Part shown: positions 643 through 25,322 of the stretch, piece by piece
How the letters are laid out: each line of letters begins with the position of its first letter
Position numbering within the stretch: position 1 is the first letter of the stretch
IMG/VR virus record: IMGVR_UViG_3300028569_000092
Span: 1-36,061 of that record
Origin: a virus
Reading direction: 5' to 3' (one strand)
Length of the DNA stretch: 36,061 nucleotides
Notes under the pieces: generated by a model
The model's database searches: none
Told to the model about the DNA's origin: nothing
Seen by the model: the letters and a program-made list of their open reading frames with translations, nothing else
Position numbers and translations under genes: made by a program

Positions 643-978
643 ATGGCCACATATTCAGATATCTATATTGACCAAGGGAGTACTTATTCTTCAACAATAA
701 ATATTAAAAATGTTGATGGTACACCTTTTGTCTTAACAGGTTATAGCGCTCGAGGACAAATAAGAAAAAGCTATAACTCTTTAACCGCTATATCTTTTGC
801 GACAAACATTAATGTTCCAACCAGTGGAAATGTTGGCATTTCTTTAACGGCAACACAAACACGAGCTATGAAACCCGGGCGATATGTGTATGATGTTGAG
901 GTATACAACTCTGGTGGTCATGTGTTGCGTATAGCTGAAGGTCAAGTTGAAATATCTCCGGCAAGTACACATCCTTAA
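643..978 (+). CDS. Small virion protein, BppU-like beta domain
   Basis: A 111-residue protein of one domain. It starts MATYSDIYIDQGSTY and contains an IKNVDGTPFVLTGYSARGQIRKSY segment followed by MKPGRYVYDVEV. This pattern (quasi-Ig strand order, 'GYSARGQIRKS', then 'PGRYVYDVEV') is known from small structural proteins of T4-like marine phages and from the N-terminal domain of baseplate upper proteins such as BppU. I infer a baseplate- or fibre-anchoring role. The start is fixed by the late promoter 6 nt upstream. No Shine-Dalgarno sequence is visible. The family assignment is from remembered patterns and is moderately sure. Confidence 0.75.
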   Translation: MATYSDIYIDQGSTYSSTINIKNVDGTPFVLTGYSARGQIRKSYNSLTAISFATNINVPTSGNVGISLTATQTRAMKPGRYVYDVEVYNSGGHVLRIAEGQVEISPASTHP

Positions 979-988
979 AAACAATACT

Positions 989-1450
989 ATGTCAGATATT
1001 ACATCAACCATTGCTCCCAATAATATTGTATTGTCTTCTTTATCAGGTGAACAAACATTAAATTCACTGACCACTAATATAGGTGCATTGTCACAACTTA
1101 CAGATGTTGATCTTCAAGGCGTAACCAACGGGTCGCTGTTAATATATGACACCAACGAGTTTGTTTCTCGTAATTTGACGGGTGCTATAAGTGTAAATGC
1201 TAATGGTCTGACCAGTGTAAATTCCAACGCAATAACTCTTGGAACACAAGCAATAAAAGTGTTTACGGATTCGGCTGAAGCACAAAGCTTTATTGCAAGT
1301 AAGATTGATGGATATGTTCCACTTGGTGTTCCAACAGGATACAGCGTATTATTCGCAGATGATGGTAGTGCTGAAATTGTTTATACACCACCGGTAATAC
1401 AGGAAACAATTGATGAATCGGAAATTGATAGTATAAATACAAGCATATGA
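989..1450 (+). CDS. Virion structural / fibre-associated protein
   Basis: A 153-residue protein if the ATG at 989 is used. A longer frame from 947 overlaps the preceding gene and is less likely. It contains LSQLTDVDLQGVTNGSLLIY, the 'L.DVD..GVTNG..L.YD' repeat found in many tail-fibre and collar proteins of T4-like phages, where it forms a short beta element. The C-terminus is acidic (ETIDESEIDSINTSI). There is no late promoter directly in front, so it is probably co-transcribed with the 643 gene. Its last codons contain the late promoter of the next gene. Role inferred: structural, probably in the fibre or baseplate. Confidence 0.7.
   Translation: MSDITSTIAPNNIVLSSLSGEQTLNSLTTNIGALSQLTDVDLQGVTNGSLLIYDTNEFVSRNLTGAISVNANGLTSVNSNAITLGTQAIKVFTDSAEAQSFIASKIDGYVPLGVPTGYSVLFADDGSAEIVYTPPVIQETIDESEIDSINTSI
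1432..1439 (+). promoter_or_regulatory. T4-type late promoter inside the preceding coding sequence
   Basis: Exact TATAAATA lying in the last codons of the 989-1450 gene, 7 nt before the ATG at 1447. The spacing matches that of the intergenic late promoters in this window. Confidence 0.7.
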
Positions 1451-1704
1451 ATAAAAACAATACAAGAGTTCAAGATTCAGCTGTGGTTTACGAACATGTT
1501 GTTTATAATAACAACGGTGTTTATGCGCAAGCAAATGGTAAAAGTTTTAAAGGATTACTAATTTCCGGTGCCGGCAATTTACACATTTACGGTTGTAATG
1601 GACAGGAAATTACGTTTCCCGTGACACCTGGTTTATATCCTTTTGCAGGAAACAGCATTGTACAAAATGGAACAACTGCAACAATAGCTGTTGTACTATT
1701 CTAA
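1447..1704 (+). CDS. Small beta-rich virion protein
   Basis: An 85-residue protein whose ATG overlaps the TGA of the preceding gene (ATGA). It is rich in Gly, Asn and Val with alternating hydrophobic residues (GLLISGAGNLHIYGCNGQ, then FPVTPGLYPFAGNSI), as in small beta-sandwich capsid or tail decoration proteins. I do not recognise a named family. It has its own late promoter inside the end of the upstream gene, so it is probably needed at higher level than its neighbour. Virion role is inferred from position and composition only. Confidence 0.65.
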   Translation: MNKNNTRVQDSAVVYEHVVYNNNGVYAQANGKSFKGLLISGAGNLHIYGCNGQEITFPVTPGLYPFAGNSIVQNGTTATIAVVLF

Positions 1705-1708
1705 TGCT

Positions 1709-3382
1709 ATGATTTCATTAAGTTTAAACTTGGCAGTATCGGTATACCCAAGAGACGGTGGTCCTTTAAGCATCAGCGGCTTCGCTTACCCGAATGAAAC
1801 CCTAGCCGCCCCAGCGGGTGCGAGTTACCAGTGGTATGTGAACGACATAGCGCGAGGAACGGCACAGACGTTAGTGCTGACTGTAAACGACATTGGCTTA
1901 GTTGTTCGCTGCGTTGTTAATGGAGTGGAATGCGCTCCCGTAACTGTCTGGCATCCAGATCAAATTTCCGCTGTGAAACACTTCTGGTGGGCGGCACAGG
2001 GAGCTTACTCTGTGATTGGAAATGATTATACTGATGAAACAGCACCATTTACTATCACCCAACCAGAGAGTATAACTATCAATAGAGCAGCCTTATCTGG
2101 CGTAGTCGTTTCTTTTAATGGGAAGGCTATTTATGGCTTCAATTCCACACCTATAATTGATACTGACTACTGCTATTGGGATAGCACCAACAGCCGATGG
2201 TACATGAACGTAGTTACTGCCCCTTACGGAGAGGCAGTCAACAATACTTATTTTAGCACGCATGATACCACATACCCGTGGCAAGCTACTACTTGGACAA
2301 ACTCTCAGACTGCTACGCGAGTAGCAACCACTACCACAACTCTTGCAACAGACGGGCAAGCGGTTATAGCATGGAGAGACATCATCGGCGGGAAAGATGC
2401 TACTACCTCCTCTCCCAACGCTGGGCTTTTTGAATCTACAGATTTAGATACTACCTCCATAAAATTTGATTCAACAGATTTTCTCAACCTCGCACCTGAG
2501 CATCGATCTGTTTTCAATTCCCAAAATTGTTGTTATATTTTTGCGGGAGCGCAGGATACAGCACCAACGGGCGGGGATACCACACACGGTGTTGTTTCGA
2601 TCAATAGAACTTCAACCATTCCTAAACTCGGATTATCTACACGAGCAAGCAGTAGTGTATTTAGAGCATCCGCTAGTTCGAATAATTCTACAGCAGTAAA
2701 TGCAAGTTCAACATCAAACGCTAACTACAACGTATTAACTGCGGAAGCACTTTTTACTAGCGGTAGTCTAAGACTCAGAGTTAATGGTAGTGTAACCGGT
2801 ACAACAGCTATATCCACCACAATTCCAAATAATACCGTTACTGCTTCGTTCATCGGTGCTGCCACAAGCAACACCACGACCAACTTCAACGGCTACATGA
2901 CAGCCATCATCCTTGCCTCTGGCAACAGCCCAATATCCGATACAGATCGTAGCCGCATTGAACGATTCATTGGATTGTTGGACGGATTAAACGTTGCATA
3001 TGAAGGTATTGGTGCAACTCGAGTTGGCAGCGACAATCCCGCAAACGCAGCAGAACCAAATGCTACTGCATGGGTGTTGATGGATGGACCGTGGTACAAC
3101 ACTCAAGGCGACCCTGGTTCAGGTTTCATTGGCGGTCAAAGTTGGCGCAAAATGGCTCCGATTGATTATGCACCGTATGGAAATAAAACTTATGTTTATG
3201 GTGATGAAACCGTACGATATGAAACCGGCGTTTGGCTCTATATAAATGCTACTCTCGGTGAAATTGCAAGAGCTTACGGCACTGAACCTTATCCTTGGTT
3301 GGCAACGTGGAACAACGGTTTCTCTGCGGCAAAAATTACATCAAGCTATAATAAAACTACCAATTATCCGGCAGTTCCATGA
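1709..3382 (+). CDS. Large tail adhesin with Ig-like and LamG-like regions
   Basis: A 557-residue protein using ATG 1709; the frame also extends to a TTG at 1691, but that overlaps the previous gene and lacks support. The N-terminal ~80 residues look like an Ig/PKD-type module (ASYQWYVNDIARGTAQTL followed by VVRCVVNGVECAP). The central part contains VIAWRDIIGGKDAT and SIKFDSTDFLNL, which resemble concanavalin/LamG-like phage adhesin domains that present glycan-binding surfaces. The C-terminal part is aromatic-rich (WVLMDGPWYNTQGDPGSG). I infer a receptor-binding or fibre-tip role. Base composition is clearly more GC-rich than the neck genes, which suggests exchange of this module between phages. 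Confidence 0.7.
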   Translation: MISLSLNLAVSVYPRDGGPLSISGFAYPNETLAAPAGASYQWYVNDIARGTAQTLVLTVNDIGLVVRCVVNGVECAPVTVWHPDQISAVKHFWWAAQGAYSVIGNDYTDETAPFTITQPESITINRAALSGVVVSFNGKAIYGFNSTPIIDTDYCYWDSTNSRWYMNVVTAPYGEAVNNTYFSTHDTTYPWQATTWTNSQTATRVATTTTTLATDGQAVIAWRDIIGGKDATTSSPNAGLFESTDLDTTSIKFDSTDFLNLAPEHRSVFNSQNCCYIFAGAQDTAPTGGDTTHGVVSINRTSTIPKLGLSTRASSSVFRASASSNNSTAVNASSTSNANYNVLTAEALFTSGSLRLRVNGSVTGTTAISTTIPNNTVTASFIGAATSNTTTNFNGYMTAIILASGNSPISDTDRSRIERFIGLLDGLNVAYEGIGATRVGSDNPANAAEPNATAWVLMDGPWYNTQGDPGSGFIGGQSWRKMAPIDYAPYGNKTYVYGDETVRYETGVWLYINATLGEIARAYGTEPYPWLATWNNGFSAAKITSSYNKTTNYPAVP

Positions 3383-3565
3383 TTAATCTTGTCCTAGGCA
3401 AACTTCCTTAAATTCGGAAGCTTCCAAATGTAACTTATGATTATTTGCTTTAAAGTAAACTTTACCATTTTCAATTTTGTACACAGTAATATAATCAAGT
3501 GGACCGCTATTTAATGCTTCAAGTTCTTCTTTAAAGCTTGATGTAATATAGATTTTATCATTCAT
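3383..3565 (-). CDS. Small leftward protein of unknown function with its own late promoter
   Basis: A 60-residue protein on the minus strand, the only convincing leftward gene here. It starts MNDKIYITSSFKEELEAL and has a balanced, charged composition with short beta-like segments (YITVYKIENGKVYFKANN), unlike the repetitive composition of antisense shadow frames. Its start codon lies 7 nt after a TATAAATA box on the same strand (3573-3580), the same spacing as the rightward late genes. Its stop codon abuts the stop of the adhesin gene, so the two genes converge tail to tail. I do not recognise the family. Late expression is inferred from the promoter; the function is unknown. Confidence 0.65.
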   Translation of the reverse strand: MNDKIYITSSFKEELEALNSGPLDYITVYKIENGKVYFKANNHKLHLEASEFKEVCLGQD

Positions 3566-3572
3566 AATAATT

Positions 3573-3580
3573 TATTTATA
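3573..3580 (-). promoter_or_regulatory. Leftward T4-type late promoter
   Basis: The plus strand reads TATTTATA, giving exact TATAAATA on the minus strand, 7 nt before the ATG of the leftward 60-residue gene. It faces away from the rightward late promoter at 3598-3605, forming a divergent pair. Confidence 0.75.
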
Positions 3581-3597
3581 ATCAAAAATGACCTCTT

Positions 3598-3605
3598 TAT
3601 AAATA
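3598..3605 (+). promoter_or_regulatory. T4-type late promoter for the 3642 gene
   Basis: Exact TATAAATA with 36 nt to the ATG at 3642, giving a leader of about 31 nt, longer than most in this window. No Shine-Dalgarno sequence is visible in it. Confidence 0.75.
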
Positions 3606-3641
3606 AAGATATAACTATTTCACATTTAATGCTCGAATAAA

Positions 3642-3947
3642 ATGCCAACTCCAAACACCAAACCGCCAACTCCAACCGCTTTTGAAAACGAACTTATGCT
3701 TATGCAGTTGGAATGGCGTAGGGAAATAAGTGATCAAATAAAAGATTTAAAGGCATTAAATACCGAATTGCGCCAGCAGTTGTATGAAATGCGCGAAGAT
3801 TTTGTAAAAAGTAATGAGTTGGTGGCGGTGCAAACGCGCGTCGATTCCTTAGAAAACGATCGTGCAAAAATTGTTGGTGGTATGTTTGTGTTACAAGTTG
3901 TAGGAAGCGCATTGCTATGGCTTATCATGAAATTTTGGAACAAGTAA
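3642..3947 (+). CDS. Coiled-coil protein with C-terminal membrane segment (holin/XhlA-like candidate)
   Basis: A 101-residue protein in three parts. Residues 1-13 are Pro/Thr-rich. Residues ~15-75 are a charged helix with heptad-like spacing (EISDQIKDLKALNTELRQQL), likely a coiled coil. Residues 77-96 form a single hydrophobic span (KIVGGMFVLQVVGSALLWLI) ending in a short basic tail. This helix-then-one-TM layout is that of XhlA-type haemolysin/holin-associated proteins of other phages and would place it in the inner membrane. T4's own holin gene t is different and was not seen here. A lysis role is inference; a membrane-anchored structural or superinfection role is also possible. Confidence 0.65.
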   Translation: MPTPNTKPPTPTAFENELMLMQLEWRREISDQIKDLKALNTELRQQLYEMREDFVKSNELVAVQTRVDSLENDRAKIVGGMFVLQVVGSALLWLIMKFWNK

Positions 3948-3953
3948 TAAAGT

Positions 3954-3961
3954 TATAAATA
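3954..3961 (+). promoter_or_regulatory. T4-type late promoter for the 3968 gene
   Basis: Exact TATAAATA, 6 nt before the ATG at 3968. It begins just after the stop codon of the coiled-coil/TM gene. Confidence 0.85.
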
Positions 3962-3967
3962 CAATAC

Positions 3968-4429
3968 ATGAGCATCGAATCCGTACCATATCCTACAAGA
4001 GAAATTTCCGATAATATCCCTTTGTTTTTATCTGATATTGGAGCCGTATCGCTCGGCGGATCGGAAGTACTTACAAACAAAACTCTTACCAATCCTACAA
4101 TTAATAACTATACTGAAGGCGTAGTAGACAATGGTACCAGTGGTATCAATGGTGCAACAAAAATCATTGAATTAACCTCAGGCACTTTTCAAACAGTAAC
4201 ACTCACAGGAAATTGTACGTTTACAATGCCTACTCCCACAGCGGGTAAAAGTTTTATTCTTAAGGTGATGACAGGTGGTGGTGGATTTACAGCCGCTTTT
4301 AATGGAGCCAAATGGTCGGATAACGTTGCGCCTGTTATTACAGCAGCTGCTAATCGCTATGACCTACTTTCATTTATCGCGGATGGCACTGCATGGAGTG
4401 GATCTGCAATTCAAAACTTTACACTATAA
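3968..4429 (+). CDS. Tail fibre-type structural protein
   Basis: A 153-residue protein. The N-terminal third contains LTNKTLTNPTINNYTEG, a sequence type found repeatedly in phage tail-fibre shafts. The C-terminal two-thirds is a beta-rich domain (TVTLTGNCTFTMPTPTAGKS, then AANRYDLLSFIADGTAW), a fold seen at the end of many phage fibre or appendage proteins. I infer that it forms part of a fibre together with the next two genes. Its start is fixed by the late promoter 6 nt upstream. The next gene starts 1 nt after its stop. Confidence 0.7.
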   Translation: MSIESVPYPTREISDNIPLFLSDIGAVSLGGSEVLTNKTLTNPTINNYTEGVVDNGTSGINGATKIIELTSGTFQTVTLTGNCTFTMPTPTAGKSFILKVMTGGGGFTAAFNGAKWSDNVAPVITAAANRYDLLSFIADGTAWSGSAIQNFTL

Positions 4430-4430
4430 T

Positions 4431-5246
4431 ATGTTCGCGGCACGAAACATGACTTTTGCTAAAAGCTCGCTCGATCCTGATGCAAATGCATACATTGCCG
4501 CGGTTGTCGCGCGCGGAGGCATTGTTAACGGGACGCAGAGGGATGTAATCAACACCTTCTACAGGACTGGGAAAAGTGATGGATGGTATTCCTCGATGAA
4601 ACGCCTTTATCTTCCAATCTGGAGAATCGCTGCGGCTAATGCTATTTGTATGACCAGTTTAACCAGCGGTACTTTTATGGGCGTCGTAACACATGGAGCT
4701 GGGTATGTCCTAAGTAATAGGACTAATGGCTACATGAGGACTAATGTTGGAATTAGGACATTAGGATTGTCTAAAGACAGCTACCACTTTGCAGGACTTT
4801 ACAAGGCATCATCAACAAATAACTACTCAGCTTTGTTCGGATCTCAGTTGGACATGTATGCAAATAAAATAAGTTTTTCTGCGACTACAATTACTGCGAT
4901 GTCCGGTTATGCTCCAGCAATAGGAGAGGTGAAAGCGGAAATTCCTTGGCATGATCGACTTGGTATTTTTACATTTAGTGGAGGAGCATCCAGTCGATTT
5001 TTAAAACGGCGTAAAACCAGCGGCGTAACTACACTTGGAACGACAAATAAAACTATCGCTACAGAACCAAACAATCTCAATGTCGCGTTTCTCGCTAACA
5101 ATGTTAACGGAGCGATAAGCAATTTTTGCGGTGAGCAGATTGGTGCATTTAGTCTCGGATTGAAACTGACTAACGCGCAAGATACTTCATATTCACTCGC
5201 TCTCAAAAACCTTTGGGAAGGCACAACCGGACTAACATTACCATGA
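4431..5246 (+). CDS. Fibre/receptor-binding-type protein (LamG-like adhesin family)
   Basis: A 271-residue protein using ATG 4431, which lies 1 nt after the upstream stop; a frame from 4275 overlaps the upstream gene and is rejected. The N-terminal part has FYRTGKSDGWYSSMKRLYLP, IAAANAICMTSLTSGTFMG and HGAGYVLSNRTNGYMRTN. This block is familiar from phage and prophage tail proteins of the concanavalin/LamG-like type. The C-terminal half includes an IGAFSLG segment, and the protein ends in a short hydrophobic tail. GC content is above that of neighbouring core genes; the 60 bases from 4501 hold 34 G or C. Receptor binding is inferred from family resemblance and position. Confidence 0.65.
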   Translation: MFAARNMTFAKSSLDPDANAYIAAVVARGGIVNGTQRDVINTFYRTGKSDGWYSSMKRLYLPIWRIAAANAICMTSLTSGTFMGVVTHGAGYVLSNRTNGYMRTNVGIRTLGLSKDSYHFAGLYKASSTNNYSALFGSQLDMYANKISFSATTITAMSGYAPAIGEVKAEIPWHDRLGIFTFSGGASSRFLKRRKTSGVTTLGTTNKTIATEPNNLNVAFLANNVNGAISNFCGEQIGAFSLGLKLTNAQDTSYSLALKNLWEGTTGLTLP

Positions 5247-5545
5247 TCGGATACGTCACTACACAAGAACAAGCGGAAGCAATTAATGACGTCATCGCAG
5301 AGGCGCAGACAAACCGTGGTCTGCCTGTATTTTGGTTGGCTGGCATCAACCCGATTTACAGCGGAGAGCACGCGGGAAGTTATTTTGTTCAATGCGACGA
5401 TGAGATACTTACTACTCCATTGATCGGAAATCCTCCACAGACTCCGCAGAATTTTCCCGAATTCGCCGCTATCATTAGTTCTATGGGTGGACTGGAAGCT
5501 CGCGTTGACATTCCAATATCCGATATTACATTAGAACAACCATGA
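5243..5545 (+). CDS. Small protein downstream of the fibre gene, unknown
   Basis: A 100-residue protein. Its ATG at 5243 overlaps the TGA of the preceding gene (ATGA), so translation is probably coupled. An upstream in-frame start at 5213 lies inside the previous gene and is not needed. It begins MIGYVTTQEQAEAINDVI and contains a Pro-rich turn (LIGNPPQTPQNFPEF). I do not recognise a family. Tight coupling to the fibre gene and similar GC content suggest a fibre chaperone, cap or accessory structural protein, but this is inference. Confidence 0.6.
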   Translation: MIGYVTTQEQAEAINDVIAEAQTNRGLPVFWLAGINPIYSGEHAGSYFVQCDDEILTTPLIGNPPQTPQNFPEFAAIISSMGGLEARVDIPISDITLEQP

Positions 5546-8693: not shown

Positions 8694-9581
8694 ATGATTG
8701 GCAATAACTTTTATCTTGGAAATCCACGTGTCAAAGGTGATGGAGTCCAACAAAATTTTACCGCACATGAAATAACTGAATATCAAAAGTGCATGAATAG
8801 TGTGGCATATTTTTGCGAGCACTACGTCAAGGTTATTGATCTTGACAACGGATTGGTACCATTTAAATTGCGTGGTTATCAAACAAAATTGGTTGATCAT
8901 TATAGTAATAATAGATTTAGTATTGTTTTAGCTCCTCGCCAAAGTGGTAAAAGTATAACATCGGTTGCATGGTTGCTTCATTATGTAATTTTTAACGGTG
9001 AAAAAAAGATTGGTGTTCTTGCCAACAAAGGCGCCACTGCTCGAGAAATGTTAAGTCGACTTACACTTATGTTGGAAAATTTACCATTTTTCCTTCAACC
9101 TGGATGTAAGGTACTAAATAAAGGAAGTATAAGATTTAGTAATAACAGCGAGATTATTGCAGCAGCCACAAGTTCAAGTAGTATTCGAGGCTTATCCTTG
9201 AACGTTATTTTCATGGATGAATTTGCATTCGTTCAAAATGCAAATGAATTTTATACTTCGACGTATCCTGTTATTTCATCTGGTAAGGAAACTAAAGTTA
9301 TTATTACAAGCACGCCAAACGGTGTTGGTAATATGTTTTATAAACTGTGGGAAGGATCAATACAAAAGAGCAACGAGTTTAAGCCGTTCCGAATTCGTTG
9401 GCAAGATGTTCCTGGTCGAGATGAAGAATGGAAACGACAAACAATTGCAAACACCAGCGAACTTCAGTTTGAACAGGAATATAGTTGTCTGCATGGTGAT
9501 ACACTTATCACTCTTAAAGATAAAGAATCAAATGAAATTATTAAAATAACATTAAATGAATATTATCAGCAATTTTCTTGA
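8694..9581 (+). CDS. 17: Terminase large subunit gp17, ATPase part fused to a split N-intein
   Basis: A 295-residue protein. Residues 1-264 are the gp17 ATPase domain, with Walker A APRQSGKS at 80-87, Walker B VIFMDE at 171-176, and the coupling motif TSTPNG at 205-210. From Cys265 the sequence changes to an intein start (CLHGDTLITL, block A) and ends after 31 intein residues (codons 9486-9578). The gene therefore lacks the nuclease domain, which is encoded from 10894 on. The protein should trans-splice with the product of the 10567-11700 gene to give a 532-residue terminase (T4 gp17 is 610). The break point, EQEYS/CSFIGSS, lies between the ATPase and nuclease domains. A 4-codon ATG frame directly upstream (8678-8692) is probably chance. 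Confidence 0.92.
   Translation: MIGNNFYLGNPRVKGDGVQQNFTAHEITEYQKCMNSVAYFCEHYVKVIDLDNGLVPFKLRGYQTKLVDHYSNNRFSIVLAPRQSGKSITSVAWLLHYVIFNGEKKIGVLANKGATAREMLSRLTLMLENLPFFLQPGCKVLNKGSIRFSNNSEIIAAATSSSSIRGLSLNVIFMDEFAFVQNANEFYTSTYPVISSGKETKVIITSTPNGVGNMFYKLWEGSIQKSNEFKPFRIRWQDVPGRDEEWKRQTIANTSELQFEQEYSCLHGDTLITLKDKESNEIIKITLNEYYQQFS
9486..9578 (+). other. Split intein, N-terminal fragment (31 residues)
   Basis: Encodes the residues from Cys1 to the stop of the gp17 N-part. Cys1 and the GDTLI block A are present, but block B (TxxH) is missing here and is found in the C-fragment instead. That very early split is the atypical arrangement of the AceL-TerL intein, whose N-fragment is 25 residues. Confidence 0.88.
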
Positions 9582-9589
9582 TCAAATAG

Positions 9590-9597
9590 TATAAATA
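9590..9597 (+). promoter_or_regulatory. T4-type late promoter for the homing endonuclease
   Basis: Exact TATAAATA, 5 nt before the ATG at 9603. The inserted endonuclease gene thus has the same promoter layout as the virion genes. Confidence 0.8.
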
Positions 9598-9602
9598 ACT
9601 TT

Positions 9603-10577
9603 ATGTCTAGAGGTAAAGATTTAAAACCAAGAAAAAAAGATTTATATGGATCGGGTAATTCGAAGCGAATGCTAAATCCGGAATATCGCGAAAAATTTTC
9701 AAATAGTATAAAGGAAAGTCGTGCTAATGAAATGGTCATAGAAAATGATATTAGTGAATATAGCTTTGAGGAAACACAAATAGAACTTAAAAAAATACTA
9801 CCTTGGACTCAAGGCACCAATAGAAAAGTTTACAAAAATAAACGATTGTATAAATCTATTAAATTTCATACATCTGAATTTATTGCTAGTAGTGATAAAA
9901 TTTCTGAATTAGTTAATTTTATATTGAATGATAAAAATATAAAAAATGTATGTGAACATTGTAATGAAAAGTTCAATTATATTTCATATAATATTGGATA
10001 TAATTGTTGTGGTAACCATTTATGTTCCAATAAAAACAAACAAAATCATTATACTAAAAAATTAAAAGAATTAAATAATGATGAGAAGCAGTATAAAAAA
10101 TGGTTAAAACTGAGAATTAATACTCATTCAGCTGAATGGTTTAAATTAAAATATAACGAAAATTGGTTTGAAAAACAAGAGAAATATAAAAAGAAAATGG
10201 GTGAAATTGCCATTCAAAATTTACAAAGAAACAATAATGTCAAATCATCTAAAATTGCTGCTAATACTCTTTTTAAATCTTTGCTTGAATCTGGATTTTC
10301 CGGTAGATGTGCTGAAAATGGCGGTGAAATTTGTATAAACATGCCATCATATAGTATACTGAATAAACACTGTATTTTCCTTGATTTTGTTTTAAATAAA
10401 AAGGTTATTGAATATGATGGTGATTATTTTCACAATACAGATGAAGACCACAAGAGAGATTTATATTTGAGGTCATTGGGATATGATGTTTTAAGAATAA
10501 AACATTCTGAATTTAGTAAACCTAGAAATAGAGATATAATTATTAGACAATGTATTAATTTTTTAAATGCAAACTAA
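9603..10577 (+). CDS. Free-standing homing endonuclease, Vsr-like (EDxHD type), inside the split intein locus
   Basis: A 324-residue protein. The N-terminal part is basic (RGKDLKPRKKDLYGSGNSKR). A Cys-rich patch at 117-141 (CEHC, then CC and HLC) may bind zinc. The C-terminal domain carries E270, D272, D274 and H277 in KKVIEYDGDYFHNTDEDHKRD, followed by YLRSLGYDVLRIKHSEF. This is the core of very-short-patch-repair-like nucleases of the PD-(D/E)XK fold. This nuclease family was described as the partner of split inteins in 'fractured' phage genes, where it cuts intein-free alleles so the locus is copied in by repair. It is far more AT-rich than its surroundings; the 60 bases from 9901 hold only 9 G or C. 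It overlaps the next gene by 11 nt. Confidence 0.85.
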   Translation: MSRGKDLKPRKKDLYGSGNSKRMLNPEYREKFSNSIKESRANEMVIENDISEYSFEETQIELKKILPWTQGTNRKVYKNKRLYKSIKFHTSEFIASSDKISELVNFILNDKNIKNVCEHCNEKFNYISYNIGYNCCGNHLCSNKNKQNHYTKKLKELNNDEKQYKKWLKLRINTHSAEWFKLKYNENWFEKQEKYKKKMGEIAIQNLQRNNNVKSSKIAANTLFKSLLESGFSGRCAENGGEICINMPSYSILNKHCIFLDFVLNKKVIEYDGDYFHNTDEDHKRDLYLRSLGYDVLRIKHSEFSKPRNRDIIIRQCINFLNAN

Positions 10578-10893
10578 TACCAAAAAACAATCAAAATATA
10601 AAATTCTTACCACAGAAGGTTTTAAGGATTTTTCAGGTATATCTAAAACGACAAATAAAGCAATATTAGAATTAATCTGTGAAAACAGCTCGATAAAATG
10701 TACATATGATCATAAATTTTTAAATTCTTTACACGAATGGCAGACTGCTTCGGAATTACAAATTGGTGATGTTTTATTAAAAGCTGGATGTATTAATAAT
10801 ATTGTAGAGTGTGGCCATGATGACGTGTATGATATATTACATGTTGATGACGTTAATCATTTTTTGGCCAATGATAATTTTATATCACACAAT
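10567..10893 (+). other. Split intein, C-terminal fragment (109 residues)
   Basis: Runs from the start codon to the terminal Asn before the +1 Cys codon at 10894. Contains intein blocks B, F and G. The opening KILTTEGFKDFSGISK closely resembles what I recall of the AceL-TerL C-fragment, which sits at the same terminase position. Confidence 0.88.
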
Positions 10894-11700
10894 TGTTCGT
10901 TTATCGGAAGTTCTCAAACATTGGTATCATCCGAATCGTTGCTTGGATTATCGGCGCTTGAACCATTAAAACGACAACACGGAATAAACTATTACTATGA
11001 ACCTGAGGAAGGTCATGATTATATTATGACTGTGGATGTAAGTAAAGGTCGTGGACAAGATTACAGCACATTCAGCATAATTGATATTTCGAGCATGCCG
11101 TTTAAAGTTGTTTGTACATACCGAGACAATATGGTTTCTCCGTTAATATTTCCTGAATATATTATGCGCGCGGCCAAACAATACAATGAAGCACTTGTTG
11201 TAATTGAAAATAATGATGCTGGTATTGTTGTTTGTAATGCCGTATATTATGACTATGAATATGATAATATGTTTGTTCAAAGCAGCACCAAAAGCAATGG
11301 CATTGGTGTTACCATGAGCAAAAGAGTAAAACGAATAGGTTGTAGCAATTTAAAAGATTTACTTGAAAGTGGTAAACTGCAAATTTGCGATGCACATACC
11401 ATTCAAGAATTAAGTAGCTTTGAACCTAAAGGTGACAGTTATTCCGCCAGTGGATCAGCACATGATGATATGGTTATGAATTTGGTAATGTTTGCCTGGT
11501 TTGTATCCACCGATGCTTTTGGAGGTATGAGTAATGTTGATCTTAAGGAATTGTTATACAGTGATAAAATTCGAGAAATGGAAGAAGACTTACCTCCATT
11601 TGGTATTATAAATAATGGTAACAACGATACTTCAAATTTTGAAAGTTTTGAAAAATATCAAGAAACACTTGACAGTATGCAGGAATGGGGCAACCTGTGA
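10567..11700 (+). CDS. 17: Split C-intein fused to the nuclease part of terminase large subunit gp17
   Basis: A 377-residue protein. Residues 1-109 are the C-intein: YKILTTEGFKDFSGISK, then ILELICENSSIKCTYDHKF with the block B T-x-x-H, and finally HVDDVNHFLANDNFISHN ending in the His-Asn pair. Cys110 is the first extein residue. Residues 110-377 are the gp17 nuclease domain: TVDVSKGRGQDY with Asp157, VVIENNDAG with Glu214, and SAHDDMVMNLV with Asp300/301. These match the T4 acidic metal ligands D401, E458 and D542. The protein acts only after trans-splicing with the 8694-9581 product, joining ATPase and headful-cutting nuclease. Its ATG overlaps the endonuclease stop, so translation is probably coupled. 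Confidence 0.92.
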   Translation: MQTNTKKQSKYKILTTEGFKDFSGISKTTNKAILELICENSSIKCTYDHKFLNSLHEWQTASELQIGDVLLKAGCINNIVECGHDDVYDILHVDDVNHFLANDNFISHNCSFIGSSQTLVSSESLLGLSALEPLKRQHGINYYYEPEEGHDYIMTVDVSKGRGQDYSTFSIIDISSMPFKVVCTYRDNMVSPLIFPEYIMRAAKQYNEALVVIENNDAGIVVCNAVYYDYEYDNMFVQSSTKSNGIGVTMSKRVKRIGCSNLKDLLESGKLQICDAHTIQELSSFEPKGDSYSASGSAHDDMVMNLVMFAWFVSTDAFGGMSNVDLKELLYSDKIREMEEDLPPFGIINNGNNDTSNFESFEKYQETLDSMQEWGNL

Positions 11701-11784: not shown

Positions 11785-14361
11785 ATGGCATTCTTAATAT
11801 CACCAGGCGTTCAAGTCAATGAAATCGACTTGACCAACGTCATTCCAGCACTCGCTTCCAGCACCGGTGGCTATGCCGGTCACTTCACATGGGGTCCTGT
11901 AGGACAACTTGTTACTGTAAGTTCCGAAAAGGACTTGATCACAAACTTCGGATCACCGGATGCAAGCACAGCAAAATCATTTTTTACTGCAGCAAGTTTC
12001 TTAAAATACGGAAATAATCTTAAAGTTTCTCGTGCTGTCGCAACAGATGCGAAAAATTCGACTGGAGCTGTAGCAGGTCAAACTGTTTCTAATGGTGATA
12101 CACGATTAATTCGTAATCTTGAAGAATACGAATCAATCACAACACCTATGACAACAGCGGCAATTACTGCTCGCTATCCAGGTGCAGCAGGTGACAGTAT
12201 TCGCGTTATTATTGCTCGTCCGAACGAGGCGGCGTGGGAGGCCAACAATGCTATTGCTAATACTGTCCGACAAAATTTCTCAAGCAAACCAAGTTCAACA
12301 TCCTTCGCTGACGCTTATGCGGCAAATATTGGTGCAGCAGATCCAATATTGGATGAAATTCACGTTCTTATCATCGACGAAAAAGGTGTTATTACAGGAA
12401 TTCCTGGTTCCATTTTGGAAAAATATGAAGGACTGTCACTTGCAAGTGATGCAAAAACAGAAAATGGCGCAACAAATTATTACAAAAATGTAATTAATCG
12501 TTCTTCTGGTTACATTTACATTACTTCATTAAGTTCCGTTGCCGTCGATGAATGGGAACGAGCAGATAAACCTATTGCTCAAGTATATGCTACGGGTGCA
12601 ACTGCGACCGTACCTGTTCTTAATTCCTTTGGTGTTCAATCCGTTGACACCAAATTATTTGGATATAATAATACTTATGACATCACCACTGGTACCGCAC
12701 AAGTAGAGACGCAAACAGTTGTTGCAGCATCGGGAGCTACCACAGCTGGTAACTTAAATGTAACAGTTACAAGTGCTCTTGTAACAGAATCACCTCTTGT
12801 AATTCCGGTTGCACTGACGACAGCGGATAACACAGCTACTTTAGTTGCGACTAAAATTCGCGCTGCGCTTAGTGCAACTGCAGACATTACCGCTCATTAT
12901 ACAGTAGGTGGTACAGGTGCTGTTTACAGCCTTACAGTTATTAAAAAGCCAACCAATTCTGGCATTACAGATACAACATTTAATATTGCACACGCCAATG
13001 ATACAAGCGCTGGTATTACCGCTGCAACAACTTCCGTAAGAACTCCTGGAGTTGTTATGAACCTGGTTCCTCGAACTGTTACAAATCTCCTTGCAGAAGA
13101 TGGTAATACATACAGCGTTGCTGTAACAGTTGAAACAACAACTGGCGGTCTTGCTGTTGATGCTCCCGTTACAACTGAAACTCCGGTTACTGTTACCGTA
13201 ACAACTGTTAAAACTATTGATGGTGTTGCGCAAACACCTGTGTCACAATCTTTCGATGTTATTATTGATGAAAATGTAGGAATTGATATTGCCGATAACT
13301 ATTATAATCTTAATATTGCTATTAATTCAACATCAAATATTATTGTTGAAATTCCTATTTTTCAAACAATAACAACAGGTGGTGGTTATGCCGCTGCTAC
13401 GGCCGCAGGTGTACAAAATATTCAATGCGACAATGCCGTTATCGGTTCTCTTACAACAGCTGGAAACATTACATCTGCATTACAATATTTTGCGGATTCC
13501 GAAACGGTTGATGTTAACTTTATTTTCAGCGAAACATATGTTCAAGGATTTGACACTTATGTTATTTCATCACAAAAAACAATTGATGATACAATTGCGA
13601 CTATTGTTAATGCGCGTAAAGATTGTGTAGGATTTATTTCTGCTCCTCTTGATATGTCAACACTATTTAGTGATACATCCAAGAAAACTTATTTGCTCGA
13701 TAAAGCAAATAACATTAACAGTTCAAGTTATCTTATCATGGATTCAACACCTGTTTATGTTTACAATAAGTATTCGGATTCATATGTTTGGATCTCGGCA
13801 TGCGGTCATATGGCCGGACTTTGCGCAAATGCAGATCGTGTTGCTGACGCATGGTTCTCACCTGCAGGTTTAAACCGCGGTGGATTACTCGGTATTACTA
13901 AATTGGCATACAACGCCGATCAAACATCTCGTGATGACATTTACAAACTTGGTGTAAACCCTATCGTTTCCTTCCCAGGACAAGGTATTATTCTTTACGG
14001 TGATAAAACACTTCAAAGAAAACCAAGTGCGTTTGATCGTATCAACGTGCGCAGACTGTTTATTACTCTTGAAAAAGCAATTGCAACCGCAGCCAAATTT
14101 CAATTGTTTGAACAAAATGATGATTTTACTCGCAGTTCATTCCGCAATACAATTGAACCGTTTTTACGCGATGTTCAAGGCCGTCGTGGTATTACCGACT
14201 TCCGAGTTGTTTGCGATGCCACAAATAATACAGGTGAGATAATTGACGGCAATCGTTTTGTTGCTGATATTTACATCAAACCTACTCGTTCAATTAACTA
14301 TATTACTCTAAACTTTATTGCAACGCGAACGGGTGTTGAATTCAAAGAAATCGTTGGATAA
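11785..14361 (+). CDS. 18: Contractile tail sheath protein gp18
   Basis: An 858-residue protein, longer than T4 gp18 (659). The N-terminus (FLISPGVQVNEIDLTNVIPA) and C-terminus (SINYITLNFIATRTGVEFKE) are the conserved sheath ends that link neighbouring subunits. The block from PGQGIILYGDKTLQRKPSAF to RINVRRLFITLEKAI is also diagnostic. The extra length is a Thr/Val/Ala-rich insertion at roughly residues 305-530, reading like one or two Ig-like surface domains (TAGNLNVTVTSALVTESPL, then TADNTATLVATKIRAAL). Such an insertion would lie on the outside of the sheath. The protein surrounds the gp19 tube and contracts on infection. It is followed by gp19, as in T4. Confidence 0.95.
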   Translation: MAFLISPGVQVNEIDLTNVIPALASSTGGYAGHFTWGPVGQLVTVSSEKDLITNFGSPDASTAKSFFTAASFLKYGNNLKVSRAVATDAKNSTGAVAGQTVSNGDTRLIRNLEEYESITTPMTTAAITARYPGAAGDSIRVIIARPNEAAWEANNAIANTVRQNFSSKPSSTSFADAYAANIGAADPILDEIHVLIIDEKGVITGIPGSILEKYEGLSLASDAKTENGATNYYKNVINRSSGYIYITSLSSVAVDEWERADKPIAQVYATGATATVPVLNSFGVQSVDTKLFGYNNTYDITTGTAQVETQTVVAASGATTAGNLNVTVTSALVTESPLVIPVALTTADNTATLVATKIRAALSATADITAHYTVGGTGAVYSLTVIKKPTNSGITDTTFNIAHANDTSAGITAATTSVRTPGVVMNLVPRTVTNLLAEDGNTYSVAVTVETTTGGLAVDAPVTTETPVTVTVTTVKTIDGVAQTPVSQSFDVIIDENVGIDIADNYYNLNIAINSTSNIIVEIPIFQTITTGGGYAAATAAGVQNIQCDNAVIGSLTTAGNITSALQYFADSETVDVNFIFSETYVQGFDTYVISSQKTIDDTIATIVNARKDCVGFISAPLDMSTLFSDTSKKTYLLDKANNINSSSYLIMDSTPVYVYNKYSDSYVWISACGHMAGLCANADRVADAWFSPAGLNRGGLLGITKLAYNADQTSRDDIYKLGVNPIVSFPGQGIILYGDKTLQRKPSAFDRINVRRLFITLEKAIATAAKFQLFEQNDDFTRSSFRNTIEPFLRDVQGRRGITDFRVVCDATNNTGEIIDGNRFVADIYIKPTRSINYITLNFIATRTGVEFKEIVG

Positions 14362-24701: not shown

Positions 24702-25322
24702 ATGGATGAAGAATACCCAGTAAAAAAACGAAGATCCCGTGGTGAAGATTATGTGAATAACAAAGAATTTTCCCAAGCATTATTTGAACACGTCAGCGGT
24801 GTAAAGAAGGACATTGCGGAAGGTAAAGAACCAAGACCGCTTAGCAATTACATTGGTGAATGTTTTTTGAAAATATGTTACGGTTTGTCAAAAAGTCCCA
24901 ACTTTGTCAAATACACATATAGAGATGATATGGTTATGGACGCAGTTGAAAATTGCATTAAAGCAGCCAATAACTATAATTTTGATGCTCCTACAAGAAC
25001 AGGATCCGCAAATGCGTTTTCCTATTTTACACAAATAAGTTACTTTGCCTTTTTGCGACGGATTGCCAAGGAAAAGAAACAAGTTGCAATTAAGCAATCT
25101 TTAATTGAACAAGGTAATATTGGAACCTTTGCTGAATTTGATGAATATTCCAACAACGGCAATGAAAGTATGATTGAAAAAATGCGCCAAAAGAATGATG
25201 CGTTTTACAATTATGATAATGAGGAACGATCAATAAAAGAAAATACAAAGCACCAAAAAGTTGACAAGAGAAAACATCCTGTTGTGCGCAAAGGATTGCT
25301 TGATAGCTTTTTGGAAGATTAA
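24702..25322 (+). CDS. 55: Late-transcription sigma factor gp55
   Basis: A 206-residue protein (T4 gp55 is 185). The central block VMDAVENCIKAANNYNFDAP followed by NAFSYFTQISYFAFLRRIAK is the sigma region 2-like core that reads the TATAAATA box. The last residues, LLDSFLED, form a hydrophobic-acidic C-terminal tail like the sliding-clamp-binding end of T4 gp55. With gp45 on DNA and host core polymerase it drives the late promoters listed here. It has an early-type promoter, as expected for a factor needed before late genes. gp47 starts 2 nt after its stop. Confidence 0.93.
   Translation: MDEEYPVKKRRSRGEDYVNNKEFSQALFEHVSGVKKDIAEGKEPRPLSNYIGECFLKICYGLSKSPNFVKYTYRDDMVMDAVENCIKAANNYNFDAPTRTGSANAFSYFTQISYFAFLRRIAKEKKQVAIKQSLIEQGNIGTFAEFDEYSNNGNESMIEKMRQKNDAFYNYDNEERSIKENTKHQKVDKRKHPVVRKGLLDSFLED

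What the first reader, a model, noticed from the sequence alone, without database searches (positions are those of the whole stretch)
8694..11700. Fractured large terminase gene: split intein halves flanking a Vsr-like homing endonuclease
Seen: gp17 is cut after EQEYS by a Cys-led 31-residue N-intein. A 324-residue nuclease gene follows, then a 109-residue C-intein ending His-Asn before Cys and the gp17 nuclease domain. All ATPase and nuclease catalytic residues are present in the two halves. Known: fractured phage genes with split inteins and EDxHD/Vsr-type endonucleases, and the atypically split AceL-TerL intein at the same terminase site. Inference: trans-splicing is essential to this phage's DNA packaging. 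The early split point and new sequence make it a fresh member of a very fast, useful intein class.
Basis: partly seen in the sequence, partly recalled or inferred. Interest (0 to 1): 0.9.

Follow-up and report, generated by a model that had tools for sequence, protein, structure and literature searches.

The report
Split-intein-fractured phage terminase gene
A mobile DNA element has cut this virus's DNA-packaging motor gene in two, and the element's own self-splicing protein pieces very probably stitch the motor back together after translation; it is a clear new example of an element class that is already known and turns out to be common.

Summary
In a T4-like phage contig, gp17 (TerL) is interrupted by exactly 1,408 bp (9486-10893). 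The order is: 264-aa ATPase extein plus 31-aa N-intein, stop codon, 324-aa EDxHD/Vsr-type nuclease gene, then 109-aa C-intein plus 268-aa nuclease extein. Two sibling contigs carry the same gene uninterrupted, joined at precisely this junction (94-97% protein identity), so this is a real insertion with a known empty site.

The C-intein's best intein match among solved structures is CatC, half of the engineered consensus of the atypically split TerL inteins. The nuclease matches I-Bth0305I. Of 49 nuclease relatives examined in other phage contigs, 46 sit directly upstream of a C-intein, 25 of them at this same TerL site. Several cultured phages have gp17 fractured at this site. The kind is known and widespread; this is a new member.

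The early split point is typical of the class.

New here: a T4-type late promoter motif sits just before the nuclease start codon, and TATAAATA recurs in 7 of 16 comparable elements (0.65 expected). A sibling TerL is split into three genes by two inteins.

The parts
8694..9485 (+). N-extein of TerL (gp17): ATPase half, 264 aa, ends EQEYS
   Evidence: Pfam Terminase_6N 3.5e-25; T4 gp17 3cpe_A residues 111-377, E=1.6e-52
9486..9578 (+). N-intein, 31 aa, Cys1 (CLHGDTLITL...YYQQFS); stop TGA 9579-9581
   Evidence: Only PDB hit is CatN 6dsl_A, nearly end to end but weak (E=1.1); same place and length as N-inteins of same-site relatives
9590..9597 (+). TATAAATA, T4-type late promoter motif starting 13 nt before the nuclease start codon
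   Evidence: TATAAATA 19 in window against 3.9 expected; 8 genes including this one have it 12-16 nt before the start; gp55-type late sigma factor at 24702
9603..10577 (+). EDxHD/Vsr-type homing endonuclease gene, 324 aa; catalytic domain about residues 235-322 (E242, D261, E270, H277, D282)
   Evidence: DUF559 5.8e-6; I-Bth0305I 3r3p E=4e-4 by profile and top fold match; alignment of relatives
10567..10893 (+). C-intein, 109 aa: block B TYDH, block F VYDILHV, block G ISHN
   Evidence: CatC 6dsl_B E=1.5e-8 alone, 2e-25 by profile; fold match to 6dsl
10894..11700 (+). C-extein of TerL: nuclease half, 268 aa, Cys+1 (CSFIGSSQTL...)
   Evidence: Terminase_6C 3.6e-15; T4 gp17 3cpe_A residues 380-584, E=9e-43; RB49/T4 gp17 fold
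9486..10893 (+). Whole inserted element, 1408 bp (not a multiple of 3), GC 25.6% against 35.7% in the flanking terL
   Evidence: Empty-site alignments with L012 and L013; composition

Best explanation
This is a fractured terL gene. A mobile element made of an atypically split class-1 intein, with its EDxHD homing-endonuclease gene between the halves, inserted at the linker between the gp17 ATPase and nuclease domains (T4 residue about 378). The two TerL pieces are made as separate proteins. The 31-aa N-intein docks onto the 109-aa C-intein to complete a HINT fold, and Cys1, the block B TxxH, the terminal Asn and Cys+1 carry out trans-splicing to a 532-aa TerL. The nuclease cuts intein-free terL alleles near this codon, and recombination copies the element in (homing). 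A T4-type late promoter inside the element probably drives the nuclease and C-half together with other late genes. Shown by sequence: anatomy, homology, clean empty-site alleles, purifying selection on the exteins. Inferred from characterised relatives: splicing, cutting, homing and promoter activity.
For: Exact boundaries and motifs. Empty-site siblings L012 and L013. C-intein match to CatC. Nuclease match to I-Bth0305I by sequence profile and fold. 46 of 49 nuclease relatives are followed by a C-intein, 25 of them before HN|C-x-F-[LH]-G-S, the TerL site, and where upstream sequence was examined several have an N-part ending in a roughly 30-aa N-intein. Same-site split gp17 occurs in cultured phages PX29, PSTRCR_127, 92A1, EniLVp02 and Va1, and in contig L050. 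Both exteins have dN/dS 0.035-0.078 against intein-free siblings. AceL-TerL, GOS-TerL and Cat are active trans-splicing inteins (PMC11766414, PMC13014065).
Against: No splicing, cleavage or expression data exist for this copy. The N-intein alone gives only a non-significant PDB match (E=1.1). The nuclease model is poor outside its C-terminal domain (mean pLDDT 51.7). The dN/dS values mostly reflect time before the insertion. No second copy of this exact element was found.
Confidence: 0.92

Rival explanations
1. The halves work as two non-covalent subunits and the intein remnants are inactive, as in the reported genes-in-pieces ribonucleotide reductase of a phage.
For: Insertion lies between two domains that fold separately; such a case is known for a ribonucleotide reductase (mentioned in PMC10448857).
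Against: All intein catalytic residues are intact, including Cys1, TxxH, HN and Cys+1; junctions match empty-site alleles to the codon.
Confidence: 0.04
2. The insert is a group I or II intron removed from RNA.
For: Intron-split terL next to a homing endonuclease exists in another phage (ICP1, PMC10448857).
Against: No Rfam match in 9300-11100 even at E<=1; N- and C-terminal pieces are intein-coding and match Cat.
Confidence: 0.01
3. Assembly chimera or artefact.
For: Closest siblings L012 and L013 lack the insert; the window is a metagenome-derived virus record.
Against: Insert is precise, complete, and has the same gene order as many independent phages; complementary intein halves in the right order are very unlikely to arise by chance joining.
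Confidence: 0.01
4. A single precursor is sometimes made by UGA readthrough and frameshifting, then spliced in cis.
For: N-part and nuclease share a reading frame with only the TGA at 9579 between them; in Va1 the nuclease is fused to the C-intein.
Against: It also needs a frameshift in the 11-bp overlap at 10567-10577; the nuclease has its own promoter motif and start codon; other elements have separate ORFs in different frames.
Confidence: 0.02

Closest known systems
AceL-TerL / GOS-TerL natural atypically split inteins and the engineered Cat (6dsl)
   Same: Host gene TerL, short N-intein (25, 37 and 30 aa; 31 here), C-intein about 104 aa in Cat (109 here), Cys+1, sequence match E=1.5e-8 to CatC
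   Different: Divergent sequence; activity and speed unknown; Cys1/Cys+1, unlike GOS-TerL (Ser1/Cys+1)
Fractured genes with EDxHD homing endonucleases (Dassa et al. 2009, Nucleic Acids Res 37:2560; paper not held, known here by citation and own knowledge)
   Same: Gene in two pieces, split intein halves, EDxHD nuclease gene between them
   Different: Nuclease shorter than most relatives (324 against roughly 390-410 aa for most); new host phage
gp17 of Aeromonas phage PX29 (17A/17B)
   Same: Fracture at the same gp17 site, N-intein of 33 aa
   Different: Nuclease annotated GIY-YIG and fused to the C-intein half
Vibrio phage Va1 terminase
   Same: Same site and the only related nuclease in the cultured-phage collection (31% identity)
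   Different: Nuclease and C-intein form one ORF

Membership tests
Class 1 intein (HINT) | Cys1, block B TxxH, block G HN, nucleophile +1 | tested here: met
   C at 9486, TYDH at 10702-10713, SHN|C at 10885-10896
Class 1 intein (HINT) | Sequence/fold similarity to known inteins | tested here: met
   CatC E=1.5e-8, profile 2e-25, Foldseek probability 1.00 but E only 2.6e-3; C-part model mean pLDDT 68.9
Class 1 intein (HINT) | Protein splicing activity | not testable with these tools
   needs expression of both halves
Atypically split TerL inteins (AceL/GOS/Cat) | N-intein of 15-37 aa and large C-intein | tested here: met
   31 and 109 aa; range from PMC13014065
Atypically split TerL inteins (AceL/GOS/Cat) | Split directly after the first alpha helix (S2 site) | tested here: inconclusive
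   N-intein aligns nearly end to end with CatN but at E=1.1; joined intein could not be modelled
EDxHD/Vsr-like homing endonuclease | Catalytic-domain homology to I-Bth0305I and conserved E, D, H, D | tested here: met
   3r3p E=4e-4, top fold hit with E=0.012 on a low-confidence model; E242, D261, E270, H277 invariant in 8 sequences
EDxHD/Vsr-like homing endonuclease | Cuts the intein-free allele and promotes homing | not testable with these tools
   empty-site substrates are available in L012 and L013
Fractured gene arrangement | Host gene split into two ORFs with complementary split intein halves and a nuclease ORF between | tested here: met
   insert 1408 bp is out of frame; 46 of 49 nuclease relatives precede a C-intein
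Group I/II intron | Ribozyme core in the insert | tested here: not met
   no Rfam match at E<=1

The most novel reading that the evidence does not exclude
TerL-fracturing split-intein elements in T4-type phages carry their own T4-type late promoter, often inside the N-intein coding sequence. This would restart transcription for the nuclease and the C-terminal half of the fractured protein. Here the motif is placed so that the nuclease mRNA would be leaderless, like several late genes of this phage. The same phage group can also carry a terminase assembled from three genes by two trans-splicing events.
Probability: 0.45. Interest if true: 0.5.

Novelty: new member of a known kind. Interest (0 to 1): 0.38.

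Why it matters
It gives a clean pair of occupied and empty terminase alleles in sibling phages, which makes homing by an EDxHD nuclease and the need for trans-splicing in DNA packaging directly testable. The census shows that this arrangement is common at one TerL site, so a large natural library of short-N-intein split inteins is at hand for protein labelling. It also suggests that such elements bring a promoter with them, which would help explain how a phage tolerates an essential late gene being cut in two.

Tried and rejected
RNA intron: no Rfam match. Close copies of the nuclease in IMG/VR with the single protein: none. Direct pattern scan with the C-intein alignment: not possible, alignment not conserved enough. 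An N-intein alignment failed for a frame error; individual N-inteins were compared instead. Tree of C-inteins: window position unresolved, so whether the intein came from the Walker B site or from same-site inteins cannot be told. Split-intein charge complementarity: halves are -2 and -5, uninformative. Primary papers Dassa 2009 and Bachmann 2015 are not held.

Full report
Observation. The window is a 36,061-base virus record from a T4-like phage. It has small terminase (8122), tail sheath (11785), tail tube, portal, major head protein, gp55-type late sigma factor and sliding clamp. The N-extein (264 aa, ending EQEYS) is followed in frame by 31 intein residues beginning with Cys, then TGA. The nuclease ORF is 9603-10577. 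The C-intein ORF starts at 10567, so it overlaps the nuclease by 11 bp in another frame, and runs through 109 residues ending FISHN into CSFIGSSQTL and the nuclease domain. Both halves match T4 gp17, at residues 111-377 and 380-584, so the cut lies at the linker between the two domains.

Is it real? Two sibling contigs, L012 (95-97% protein identity) and L013 (94-97%), have terL in one frame with residue 264 joined directly to residue 1 of the C-extein. DNA on both sides is collinear at 82-87% identity; in L012 the match ends at window position 9487 and resumes at 10900. The insert is 1,408 bp, not a multiple of three, with 25.6% GC against 35.7% in the flanking terL. Against these siblings and L036, dN/dS is 0.035-0.078 for both halves. 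Most of that divergence probably predates the insertion, so it shows a functional gene but not selection since the fracture.

Intein. The C-intein alone matches CatC, the C half of the engineered consensus TerL intein, at E=1.5e-8, and a profile of eleven relatives matches it at 2e-25. One hit with a lower E-value, an ankyrin DARPin (6mol_A), is a repeat artefact in which no single stretch passes. The N-intein's only PDB match is CatN, nearly end to end but weak (E=1.1). The predicted C-part (mean pLDDT 68.9) matches T4/RB49 gp17 nuclease and, more weakly, Cat and VidaL. Reported natural atypical N-inteins have 15-37 residues (PMC13014065), so 31 is ordinary. AceL-TerL and GOS-TerL splice at about 2e-3 per second; the engineered Cat at 1.6e-2 (PMC11766414). 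The speed of this copy is unknown.

Nuclease. Pfam gives DUF559 (5.8e-6) and MTES_1575. A two-sequence profile matches I-Bth0305I (3r3p, 4e-4), and that is also the top fold match, though at E=0.012 on a model that is reliable only in the C-terminal domain. A search for relatives gave more than 300 in viral contigs. Of 49 examined, some near-duplicates among them, 46 are followed by a C-intein, 25 of them just before C-x-F-[LH]-G-S, the TerL site of this window; others lie in a helicase-like gene, a Clp-like ATPase, gp46 and TerL at Walker A (gene names by inspection). Where upstream sequence was examined, several TerL cases also have an N-part ending in a roughly 30-aa N-intein. This is the fractured-gene arrangement described in 2009 by Dassa and colleagues (paper not held; known by citation and own knowledge).

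Distribution. gp17 is fractured at this same site in cultured phages PX29, PSTRCR_127, 92A1, EniLVp02 and Va1 and in contig L050, some with a GIY-YIG-type nuclease instead. Va1 carries the only related nuclease in the cultured-phage collection, fused to the C-intein half. Other inteins sit at Walker A (305 phage records match that C-intein) or Walker B. So the same intein class occurs with different nucleases and at three TerL sites. A tree of C-inteins does not resolve where the window copy belongs.

Expression. TATAAATA occurs 19 times in the window against 3.9 expected. On the plus strand it starts 12-16 nt before the start codon of 8 of 32 genes, the nuclease gene among them, against 0.08 expected by random placement. 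By the known layout of T4 late promoters (own knowledge) this would put the first transcribed base at or within a few bases of the start codon. No gene start examined has an SD-like motif. Among 16 split elements, 7 have TATAAATA within 150 nt of the N-intein start, 0.65 expected from dinucleotide shuffles; two of the seven (PSTRCR_127, 92A1) are related and two come from one contig, so they are not fully independent, and the test was made after the pattern had been seen in some of them. Inference: the elements carry their own late promoter.

Verdict. A well-supported fractured terL with an atypically split intein and an EDxHD nuclease gene: a new member of a known and common kind. Trans-splicing, cleavage, homing and promoter function are inferred, not shown.

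Noticed in passing
L014 (IMGVR_UViG_3300033571_029756) 843-5318: In a sibling phage (C-extein 94% identical) terL is in three genes: one split intein at Walker A (PRQSGK|SITS), another at Walker B (SLN|CIFMDEF) with a GIY-YIG-like nuclease fused to its N-intein, while the window's site is empty. TerL would need two trans-splicing events.
   Followed up: partly
window, 32 gene starts: No SD-like motif at any gene start examined, and TATAAATA 12-16 nt before 8 start codons, suggesting leaderless late mRNAs in a T4-like phage.
   Followed up: partly
N-intein regions of the window, L001, L003, L004, L050, L014 (two): T4 late-promoter motif within 150 nt of the N-intein start in 7 of 16 split elements against 0.65 expected.
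   Followed up: partly
L036, L037 at the terL junction: Siblings with no intein have EFE|VAF instead of EYS|CSF and are more diverged in the blocks next to the junction (70-73% against mostly 74-97% elsewhere), which could be a homing-resistant allele.
   Followed up: no
L124 (Shigella phage SP21535), L122, L123: T4-like cultured phages carry Walker B-site gp17 inteins; L123 and L124 have the gene split with a separate ORF between the halves. E. coli phages such as HY03 match the same kind of C-intein and would suit experiments.
   Followed up: no
L121 (Campylobacter phage CP21) 511-4818: Terminase gene with several intein segments, including two C-intein ends close together in one ORF.
   Followed up: no
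window 11785-14361: Tail sheath protein is 858 aa, and the best tail-sheath profile (496 positions) covers residues 325-857, so it has a large extra region.
   Followed up: no
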